A stretch of 39,136 nt of DNA from Parcubacteria group bacterium GW2011_GWA2_43_11 (GTDB lineage Bacteria > Patescibacteriota > Minisyncoccia > Phycocordibacterales > UBA12088): NCBI GenBank assembly GCA_000998805.1, contig LCFC01000003.1, positions 1 through 39,136 on the forward strand, read 5' to 3'. The position numbers and the translations under genes were made by a program. Shown here in pieces: positions 16,435 through 18,206 of this stretch. Below the pieces are notes generated by a model, which saw only the letters and a list, made by a program, of their open reading frames with translations, made no database searches and had not been told where the DNA came from. Numbering within the stretch: position 1 is the stretch's first letter; each line of letters begins with the position of its first letter.

Positions 16435-16558
16435 CCCGTTAGAGACAGCCCCGCCTTGGCGGGACGTCGGTTAAATTAATAATATTGTTTTGCGTGCCAG
16501 CATTCATACTATTCTCTACCGTCAAAATATACCACAAGTCAAGTATCGTCTCTAACGG
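16435..16558. mobile_element. Family 2 non-coding element abutting the ATP-grasp start codon
   Basis: CCCGTTAGAGACAGCCCCGCCTTGGCGGGACGTCGGTTAAATTAATAAT ... GTCTCTAACGG. Confidence 0.65.
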
Positions 16559-16570
16559 AACGAGCTACTT

Positions 16571-16975
16571 TTATTCGTAACAACTTCGTGACGCAAACAC
16601 TTCTTGAGGCGTGGGGCTTACCCCTCCTTTGATTTCAGCTACGCGTGCTTGACCAAGTGTCGCAACAAAACAAGCTTCCATTTCAGGGGTGAGAGTACTT
16701 GGAAGTGATTCAGGGTTAACCCCTATTGCCTTAAGGGCGGATTCTTGCTCTGGGGAAAGCTTTGAATTTTTGTCAGTTGGAGACGTTTCTGAGCTATCAC
16801 CAATAGGCCGAGCTTGCTGTTCTACCTCCCCCGCAACTTCCGAGTCAGCCGTCATAAGTGAAATAAGTGGGCGAACATTAAAGGGGTCTGCAAACCACAC
16901 GTAGGCAAGACCCCAGAGGACAACAAAAAAGATGACGCCAAGGGTTACAAAAAAGTATGTGAGGAAATTTTTCAT
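16571..16975 (-). CDS. Single-pass membrane protein, hypothetical
   Basis: MKNFLTYFFVTLGVIFFVVLWGLAYVWF then Cys-containing extracytoplasmic region. Confidence 0.6.
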   Translation of the reverse strand: MKNFLTYFFVTLGVIFFVVLWGLAYVWFADPFNVRPLISLMTADSEVAGEVEQQARPIGDSSETSPTDKNSKLSPEQESALKAIGVNPESLPSTLTPEMEACFVATLGQARVAEIKGGVSPTPQEVFASRSCYE

Positions 16976-17001
16976 CGTAGACTGAATAAAAAAGACAGTC
17001 C

Positions 17002-17760
17002 CTATACTGTACCACGCTTTTTGGTATGGTACGATTTCCATGCATAAAATACCACCGCAGAACTTGAGGCAACGTTCAGAGATTCTACCTCTTTCTCTAT
17101 TGGTATAGAAAGCTGAAAATCACACACTTCTTCCGTTTTTTCACGAAGCCCCCTCCCTTCGTTTCCAAGTACAAACACGGATGGTTTTGTGAATGCTTCG
17201 TCCGGGATACTGGTATCACCATCTCCTGCAAGACCATAAATCCAGAAACCTCGTTCCTTCAAATCACGCAATGTTGTGTTGACGTTTCCTATAGTCACCA
17301 ACGGTATAGCAAACGCCATACCCGCGGAAACTTTTACAACAGTTCCCGTCACCGGTGCTTGTCGATACTCAGGAATCAAAACGCCAGAAATACCAAAAGC
17401 GGCAGCGTTCCGAATCACAGCTCCGACATTATGGGGATCGGTCAGCTCGTTAAGAACGACAAGTGCGGTAGTATCCGTAACTGTAAGACCCTCAATAAAA
17501 GGTTTATAGGGCTTCAGTATTTTATTGGGAGAAACACGAGCCACCACACCTTGGTGTACAGAGTCTTTGCCAACATCTCTTGGAAGATGGTCTTCATCAC
17601 ATCGGTCAAAAGCAACCCCTAGTTCTTCAACCTTCGTTCTGATTTTTTCTGCCTCGCGTCCACCGACAAAGTAAACATGTTGCACAGTCTCTGGTGCTCG
17701 GGTAAGTGCCTCAAAAACAGCGTGCGTACCGAATATATAGGTCTGATCTTTATTTTTCAT
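17002..17760 (-). CDS. SpoU/TrmH family RNA 2'-O-methyltransferase (RlmB-like)
   Basis: YIFGTHAVFEALTRAPETVQHVYFV; LVVLNELTDPHNVGAVIRNAAAFG; VFVLGNEGRGLREKTEEVCDFQLSIPIEKEVESLNVASSSAVVFY. Confidence 0.93.
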   Translation of the reverse strand: MKNKDQTYIFGTHAVFEALTRAPETVQHVYFVGGREAEKIRTKVEELGVAFDRCDEDHLPRDVGKDSVHQGVVARVSPNKILKPYKPFIEGLTVTDTTALVVLNELTDPHNVGAVIRNAAAFGISGVLIPEYRQAPVTGTVVKVSAGMAFAIPLVTIGNVNTTLRDLKERGFWIYGLAGDGDTSIPDEAFTKPSVFVLGNEGRGLREKTEEVCDFQLSIPIEKEVESLNVASSSAVVFYAWKSYHTKKRGTV

Positions 17761-17877
17761 CCCGTTAGAGACAGGTCACGAAGTGACCGTCGATTAGATT
17801 AGTAATGTTTTGTATTTTTATCATATTCTTTATTTTGAAGTACACCTAGAAACATTGCTGTTTTGGTCTTTAACGGG
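17761..17877. mobile_element. Family 2 non-coding element, first of tandem pair
   Basis: CCCGTTAGAGACAGGTCACGAAGTGACCGTCG ... TTTTGGTCTTTAACGGG; left end abuts CAT start codon at 17758-17760; followed by ATTCAT. Confidence 0.75.
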
Positions 17878-17883
17878 ATTCAT

Positions 17884-18027
17884 CCCGTTAGAGACAGCCG
17901 AGCTGTATGTTTGCACAGGTGCAAACATACAGCTCGGCGTCGGTTAAATTAATAATTGTTCGTATTTTTATCATATTCTTTATTTTGAAGTACACCTAGA
18001 AACATTGCTGTTTTGGTCTCTAACGGG
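17884..18027. mobile_element. Family 2 non-coding element, second of tandem pair
   Basis: CCCGTTAGAGACA + 42-nt palindrome + CGTCGG ... TTTTGGTCTCTAACGGG; near-identical right half to 17761-17877; followed by ATTCAT. Confidence 0.75.
17897..17938. repeat. 42-nt perfect palindrome (20-bp arms, 2-nt centre)
   Basis: GCCGAGCTGTATGTTTGCAC AG GTGCAAACATACAGCTCGGC. Confidence 0.9.
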
Positions 18028-18206
18028 ATTCATAGTTGTCTAGGTAACCCTAAGACTACTGTAATACCACAGAAACGAGTACAAGGCAATCAAAGTTTAA
18101 GTACCGAGTTTGCGAGCTTGCCCCGCCGTGGCGGAGTGAAAGTTACCGAGTCACGGAAAGACCTGTATAGGTATGCGACGTAGGTATACGTTAGAGTTTG
18201 AGCGTG

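What the first reader, a model, noticed from the sequence alone, without database searches (positions are those of the whole stretch)
16435..18033. Family 2 elements sit exactly on ATG start codons
At mscL (8379), the ATP-grasp gene (16434) and the SpoU methyltransferase (17760) the element begins at the base next to the start codon (gene sense: CTGTCTCTAACGGG|ATG). Tandem units are separated by ATTCAT (sense ATGAAT), suggesting ATGA/ATGAA is the target and is regenerated by duplication. This would separate each gene from its native Shine-Dalgarno while keeping its ATG.
Basis: partly seen in the sequence, partly recalled or inferred. Interest (0 to 1): 0.82.

Follow-up and report, generated by a model that had tools for sequence, protein, structure and literature searches.

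The report
Start-codon mobile elements with tiny nuclease
Small mobile DNA elements in this uncultured bacterium and many relatives insert exactly at the start codons of genes, even essential ones, while leaving the gene readable; the full-length version is only about 277 bases long and encodes one 86-residue GIY-YIG nuclease, so it may be the smallest self-moving element known.

Summary
In this 929-kb draft genome, 26 of 27 sense-oriented element ends are followed directly by ATG, and 20 of the 27 sit on the start codon of a gene. The elements have 13-bp terminal inverted repeats, [T/C]CCCGTTAGAnnn...nnnTCTAACGGG[A/G], and 4-bp target duplications (usually TGAA); the terminal A plus the duplicated TG rebuilds ATG. 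Most copies are ~117-nt non-coding derivatives. The mscL copy (8379-8659) carries an 86-aa GIY-YIG nuclease whose stop overlaps the mscL start (ATGA). Relatives of this ~277-nt element occur in MAGs of many phyla; 71 of 80 retrieved loci have both repeats. Their C-terminus (LKRFLSLTG*) is the right repeat itself, and many start on the host's own ATG. A second stem next to the right repeat covaries beyond synonymous-codon expectation; the protein is under purifying selection. Best reading: a new kind of miniature transposable element at cistron junctions, with GIY-YIG as its only enzyme. Mobility by the nuclease is inferred, not shown. No published description was found in an open-access library without preprints.

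The parts
8379..8659 (-). GIY-YIG-bearing element (281 nt incl. both terminal bases) abutting mscL
   Evidence: 13-bp TIR TCCCGTTAGAGAC/GTCTCTAACGGGA; same element in G001 and G002 at other genes
8376..8636 (-). 86-aa GIY-YIG nuclease ORF; stop TGA (8376-8378) overlaps mscL ATG (8377-8379); C-terminus FLSLTG is encoded by the right TIR
   Evidence: Pfam GIY-YIG E 4e-17; 2924 relatives; AlphaFold pLDDT 92.9, nearest PDB 1zg2, also Slx1 and I-TevI
8393..8407 (-). 3' arm of internal stem P2, 1 nt from the right TIR
8552..8566 (-). 5' arm of internal stem P2 (GGAAACGCTTGAGGC), inside the coding sequence
8660..8663 (-). left copy of the 4-bp target duplication (sense TGAA); right copy at 8375-8378
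8664..8780 (-). upstream non-coding element in tandem (right end and hairpin intact; left end not recognisable, end approximate; terminal A missing)
16434..16560 (-). non-coding element (127 nt) on the ATG of the ATP-grasp gene; hairpin at about 16449-16465
17760..17878 (-). non-coding element (119 nt) on the ATG of the SpoU methyltransferase
17756..17759 (-). right copy of target duplication TGAA; further copies at 17879-17882 and 18029-18032
17883..18028 (-). second tandem non-coding element (146 nt) with a 19-bp hairpin
7936..8379 (-). mscL (host gene)
   Evidence: Pfam MscL E 4e-46
15526..16434 (-). RimK-type ATP-grasp gene (host gene)
17002..17760 (-). SpoU-family rRNA methyltransferase (host gene)

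Best explanation
The elements are a family of miniature DNA transposable elements. The full-length form (about 272-281 nt) consists of one 86-codon gene for a stand-alone GIY-YIG nuclease, and its C-terminal codons are the right inverted repeat. The ~117-nt copies are shortened non-coding derivatives moved in trans. SHOWN: 13-bp terminal inverted repeats whose inner and outermost pairs covary; a 4-bp target duplication, usually TGAA; occupied and empty orthologous sites; strong bias to start codons; a second conserved stem 1 nt inside the right repeat, present in coding and many non-coding forms; purifying selection on the protein. INFERRED: the nuclease recognises the paired or folded ends, cuts, and drives insertion at TGNN/TNNN. 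Insertion at (A)TGA keeps every frame. The left TGA keeps the stop of an overlapping upstream gene. The element's ORF starts on the old ATG (ATG AAT CCC GTT AGA GAC...) or on its own ATG and stops at the right TGA. The element's terminal A plus TG remakes the host start, so the host gene is expressed by stop-start (ATGA) coupling. Non-coding copies leave the host to initiate on the remade ATG without a Shine-Dalgarno; that step is unresolved.
For: Ends and duplications: 71 of 80 GIY-YIG loci fetched by protein similarity alone have both repeats, 65 of them 272-289 nt long. A host start is at offset 0 in 32 and within 15 nt in 45. Over all T/A-ended copies, a 4-bp duplication is found in 24/34 coding and 46/78 non-coding elements. 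Structure: P1 98.7% paired; inner 3 bp 97% vs 64% shuffled; outer pair 98% vs 52%; P2 93.9% paired vs 79.1% (sd 1.3) for position-matched synonymous shuffles and 15-40% when slid by 1-3 nt. G000-type non-coding copies keep a hairpin of varied sequence at the same place. Protein: Y3, Y5, Y16, R24, H30 and E62 invariant, N76 nearly so; dN/dS 0.05-0.27; GIY-YIG fold. Host ATG used by the ORF: 14 of 26 run in frame from the old ATG to the ATGA stop; in L165, L187, L192 and L198 codon 1 of the aligned protein is not a start codon and the old ATG is the in-frame start. Polymorphism: mscL, SpoU and a glycosyltransferase gene are occupied in some sister genomes and empty in others. Co-occurrence: element-type GIY-YIG (E<=1e-26) in 10/16 motif-rich genomes and 0/16 motif-free ones. 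Spread: TCTAACGGGATGA in 117/392 genomes of the class, reversed control in 5.
Against: No transposition, cleavage or expression has been measured. GIY-YIG enzymes are known as homing or repair nucleases, not as integrases, and nothing here shows strand transfer. Several non-coding subfamilies (inner repeat ATT, ACT, GCT) share only the termini and mostly lack the adjacent hairpin. In about a third of the non-coding copies no 4-bp duplication is recognisable. Six of the 16 motif-rich genomes gave no element-type GIY-YIG hit at E<=1e-26, though drafts are incomplete. Phylum labels rest on metagenome bins, which can hold foreign contigs.
Confidence: 0.72

Rival explanations
1. The element is a miniature inverted-repeat element moved by an unidentified conventional transposase in trans, and the GIY-YIG gene is a passenger or accessory.
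For: The non-coding copies far outnumber the coding one in G000 (about 26 to 1). Some motif-rich genomes gave no GIY-YIG hit of the element type. A TIR plus short duplication is typical of DDE transposition (general knowledge).
Against: No other ORF was found between these ends: paired ends span about 43-340 nt, although pairs further apart were not searched for systematically. The GIY-YIG gene is the only content of full-size copies in many phyla, its codons form the right repeat, and it is under purifying selection.
Confidence: 0.17
2. It is a homing endonuclease gene: the GIY-YIG enzyme cuts conserved start-codon sites and is copied by double-strand-break repair, with no true transposition.
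For: GIY-YIG is a classic homing nuclease fold (TIGR01453 hit below its cut-off; I-TevI among PDB matches). Some genes are hit in more than one genome: fmt, pyrG, ychF.
Against: The insertion sites are dozens of unrelated genes sharing only TGNN. There are target duplications, inverted repeats and non-coding derivatives, none of which define homing.
Confidence: 0.08
3. The copies are host regulatory leaders (promoter or translation cassettes) kept for gene expression, not mobile elements.
For: In G001 some orthologous copies lost the left end but kept the right half (L073, L074, L078). Three identical copies occupy ribosomal-protein junctions in one genome (L246).
Against: Occupancy differs between sister species, four copies in G000 are not at genes, and there are duplications plus a conserved nuclease gene. 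On the sense strand A.C mismatches are not rarer than G.T, so no preference for sense-RNA pairing is seen.
Confidence: 0.05

Closest known systems
Bacterial MITEs and insertion sequences with TIRs (DDE transposases)
   Same: Terminal inverted repeats, short target duplication, coding and shortened non-coding copies, tandem insertions
   Different: No DDE enzyme; the only ORF is an 86-aa GIY-YIG nuclease; ~277 nt in all; right TIR is coding; start-codon placement
GIY-YIG homing endonucleases (I-TevI, free-standing HEGs)
   Same: Fold and catalytic residues
   Different: No intron, no single long target site; has TIRs, target duplications and non-coding derivatives
UPF0213/YhbQ-type small GIY-YIG proteins (COG2827)
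   Same: Nearest solved relative 1zg2 (BH0048), similar size
   Different: Here the gene lies inside a repeat-bounded element whose end it encodes
HEARO/IscB and IS200/IS605 elements
   Same: Sit next to a short target such as ATGA (HEARO, from memory); hairpins near the ends
   Different: No HNH/RuvC or HUH gene, symmetric TIRs, target duplicated; no Rfam match in the window
T4 gene 60 bypass cassette with the mobA homing endonuclease (from memory)
   Same: Mobile nuclease whose insertion is tolerated by translation
   Different: Here the gene start is remade; no evidence of ribosome bypass
Patescibacterial GIY-YIG proteins reported as transferred to other bacteria (PMC12455944)
   Same: Possibly overlapping proteins
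   Different: The passages found there mention the protein domain only; no inverted repeats are mentioned

Membership tests
MITE / TIR transposable element | Terminal inverted repeats | tested here: met
   12-14 bp in most complete copies; 98.7% paired over 13 bp in 49 elements
MITE / TIR transposable element | Short target-site duplication | tested here: met
   4 bp in 24/34 coding and 46/78 non-coding copies
MITE / TIR transposable element | Occupied versus empty orthologous sites | tested here: met
   mscL, SpoU and a glycosyltransferase gene
DDE insertion sequence | DDE transposase between the same ends | tested here: not met
   Only the GIY-YIG ORF or no ORF between paired ends
GIY-YIG nuclease superfamily | Domain and catalytic residues (two Tyr motifs, Arg, His, Glu, Asn) | tested here: met
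   Pfam E 4e-17; Y3, Y5, Y16, R24, H30, E62 invariant, N76 at least 90%
Homing endonuclease gene | One conserved long target site, no duplication | tested here: not met
   Unrelated genes, TGNN only, 4-bp duplications
HEARO / IscB / IS605 | Rfam match or HUH/IscB/TnpB gene | tested here: not met
   No Rfam match in the window; no such ORF fits between the ends
Any transposon | Movement catalysed by its own enzyme | not testable with these tools
   Needs an experiment

The most novel reading that the evidence does not exclude
A GIY-YIG domain alone acts as a transposase. With its own end repeats it forms the smallest self-mobile DNA element known (about 277 bp). Its ends are written so that a single 4-bp duplication at (A)TGA preserves the upstream stop, supplies the element's own stop and rebuilds the downstream start, which lets it invade essential operons harmlessly.
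Probability: 0.55. Interest if true: 0.95.

Novelty: categorically new. Interest (0 to 1): 0.87.

Why it matters
No transposable element known to me, or found in the open-access papers searched, uses a lone GIY-YIG nuclease or fits in under 300 bp, and none places itself on start codons by design of its ends. If confirmed, it adds an enzyme class to DNA transposition. It explains one group of the many small GIY-YIG or 'excinuclease ABC C' proteins annotated in Patescibacteria. It also shows how a mobile element can invade dense, essential operons (ribosomal protein genes, adk, clpP, pyrG) without breaking them, and offers a very small candidate tool for inserting DNA at gene starts.

Tried and rejected
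Rfam scan of the window: nothing. Other GIY-YIG genes of G000 (C26, C7, C6, C5): no such repeats around them in the stretches read, so not all small GIY-YIG genes are elements. A leader-peptide or coupling role for the non-coding copies: 35 of 46 uORFs from the old ATG stop early, so coupling does not explain them. Native SD displacement: rejected. Leaderless targets: a -10-like hexamer lies within 26 nt of 19/72 left starts against 12.7 expected, 7 of them at the 6-nt spacing of a leaderless start; suggestive only. Sense-RNA structure: A.C mismatches are not rarer than G.T on the sense strand, so no support for RNA-level rather than DNA-level pairing. Viral carriers: one weak partial hit in viral contigs. 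Host-tree congruence: phylum labels on the 86-aa tree are as scattered as shuffled ones (26 changes vs 26.5), but resolution is low. Paper searches: none of the listed papers describes, by title or abstract, a GIY-YIG element with TIRs; the end sequence CCCGTTAGAGA occurs in none.

Full report
CHECK. On the sense (minus) strand each unit reads TCCCGTTAGAGAC...CTGTCTCTAACGGG|ATG. The three genes are mscL, a RimK-type ATP-grasp gene and a SpoU methyltransferase. mscL orthologues in four sister genomes begin at the same residue without an element, so that start call is right; SpoU orthologues align from the first residues.

GENOME-WIDE. A search of the whole draft genome (929 kb, 47 contigs) found 54 ends with at most one mismatch. 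Reading them gives 27 sense right ends. Twenty-six are followed at once by ATG; the exception, the upstream unit at mscL, reads GGG|TGAA. Twenty of the 27 open an ORF of 100 aa or more or a recognisable gene, apparently including RsmI, RNase H, aldolase, methionine aminopeptidase, UvrA, an ATP synthase subunit and FtsE (named by reading the protein starts, not by a family search). Three others are upstream units of tandem arrays and four are not at genes. The probability is 5e-26 against all ATGs and 8e-12 against intergenic ATGs, with base rates from the window. Related end variants sit on adk, RNase R, clpP, rpsB and an L31 gene (CCCGTTAGAAATT; named by reading) and on a 255-aa ORF (GAGGTG/CACCTC).

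THE FULL ELEMENT. At mscL the unit holds an 86-aa GIY-YIG ORF (8376-8636, minus) whose TGA overlaps the mscL ATG. The same element, 277-280 nt with its terminal bases, lies on other genes in G001 (the same contig as Parcubacteria GW2011_GWD2_42_14) and, with a frameshifted ORF, in G002. The protein has 2924 relatives. Among the 120 best, most end in LKRFLSLTG, which is the translated right repeat, and some begin MNPVRDK or MIPVRDN, which is the host ATG plus the left repeat. Eighty loci fetched by protein similarity, without regard to flanks, come from MAGs of Patescibacteria, Omnitrophota, Planctomycetota, Thermodesulfobacteriota, WOR-3, Nitrospirota, Woesearchaeota and others. Seventy-one have both repeats, 65 of them 272-289 nt long. 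A host start is at offset 0 in 32 and within 15 nt in 45. Examples are fmt, pyrG, ychF and topA (named by reading the protein starts).

TARGET AND ENDS. The outermost pair of the element is T...A or C...G and covaries (98% paired vs 52% shuffled). The duplication is then 4 bp: TGAA, TGAG, TGGA or TGCG at starts, TTTA, TAAA and TTAA elsewhere. C/G-ended copies turn ATG into GTG (L136, L142), so the first base of the new start comes from the element. In 41 of 110 T/A copies an upstream reading frame of 90 codons or more stops within about 15 nt of the left end (some loci overlap, so this count is rough). Thirteen of those stops lie 4 nt before the left end, that is, they are the TGA of the left duplication (overlapping ATGA junctions), and six are the TAG inside the repeat itself (TCC CGT TAG).

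STRUCTURE. Besides the end repeats (P1), the coding element has a 10-15-bp stem (P2) whose 3' arm ends 1 nt before the right repeat. Both arms are protein-coding. In 49 elements P2 is 93.9% paired over 11 bp, against 79.1% (sd 1.3) for position-matched synonymous shuffles and 15-40% when slid. Most GAC-type non-coding copies have a short hairpin of varied sequence in the same place (GGTCAC/GTGACC, GCCCCGC/GCGGGGC, GGTTGCGAC/GTCGCAACC and others). In L075 the hairpin is GGAAAC/GTTTCC, which looks like the coding element's arms with the loop deleted. A.C mismatches are not rarer than G.T on the sense strand, which gives no support for a sense-RNA structure over DNA.

PROTEIN. AlphaFold pLDDT is 92.9. 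The closest PDB fold is UPF0213 protein 1zg2, then Slx1 and the I-TevI catalytic domain (TM-scores are modest, 0.5-0.64). The catalytic residues of GIY-YIG enzymes are conserved. dN/dS is 0.05-0.27 in six pairs.

MOBILITY. Orthologous sites differ in occupancy. The GIY element at mscL is in G000 only; G001 has a non-coding unit there and G002-G005 none. The G001 GIY site is empty in G000, G002 and G004. SpoU carries two units in G000, one in G001 and none in G002-G005. TCTAACGGGATGA occurs in 117 of 392 genomes of the class, its reversed control in 5. Of 30 loci drawn from those genomes, 19 carry a perfect 13/13 inverted repeat and four more 11-12/13, although the inner repeat bases differ between them. 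Element-type GIY-YIG genes occur in 10 of 16 motif-rich and 0 of 16 motif-free genomes.

HOW IT WORKS. Shown: anatomy, target duplication, site preference, conservation. Inferred: the nuclease makes the cuts; the element is expressed from the host's own start or its own ATG (14 of 26 coding copies with a left start run in frame from the old ATG to the ATGA stop); the host gene is reached by termination-reinitiation, which is established for ATGA overlaps in general (PMC6728339). Unknown: how host genes behind non-coding copies are translated. This genome hardly uses Shine-Dalgarno sites, and some targets look leaderless, so de novo initiation on the remade ATG is plausible. Whether start-codon bias reflects target choice or survival of harmless insertions is also open; the four non-gene copies in G000 still have ATG at the right end, so both may contribute.

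COMPARISON AND NOVELTY. It behaves like a TIR transposable element with MITE derivatives and meets the tested features of that kind, but it has no known transposase. It is not a homing gene by the tested features. Paper searches found no description; one 2025 paper (PMC12455944) independently lists GIY-YIG proteins among genes passed from Patescibacteria to other bacteria. The held library lacks preprints and most subscription journals, so priority cannot be certain.

LIMITS. Draft metagenome bins; start codons inferred from ORFs and homology; the class sample was selected on ATG, whereas the G000 census and the GIY-YIG loci were not.

Noticed in passing
L246 1405-1509, 2438-2542, 2730-2834: Three near-identical 105-nt copies at ribosomal-protein junctions (upstream of L24, S14 and S8) in one genome; at one of them the left repeat supplies the stop codon of L5 (TCC CGT TAG).
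   Followed up: partly
L048 314-425 (minus): A tRNA gene (apparently tRNA-Val, GAC anticodon) enclosed by a variant of the same ends (CCCGTTAGAAAAA...TTTTTCTAACGGG) followed by ATG.
   Followed up: no
window 32071-32149 and 32834-32912: A perfect 79-nt inverted repeat 684 nt apart; one arm lies inside a 483-aa ORF, and inversion of the segment would truncate that ORF at 295 codons.
   Followed up: partly
window ~12088, 13831, 24676, 29752: Another dispersed repeat family (AGGCGCGCAAACAAAATACTACG...).
   Followed up: no
L032 3788-3830: A 43-nt minicopy (both end repeats and a hairpin only) inside a coding gene.
   Followed up: no
L034 vs L077, L044 vs L076, L049 vs L072: Orthologous copies whose interior is conserved but whose hairpin was swapped between GGTCAC- and CCCGCC-type stems.
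   Followed up: partly
window 343-642 and 2125-2424: Direct repeat of 300 nt, 87% identical, probably a duplicated gene segment.
   Followed up: no
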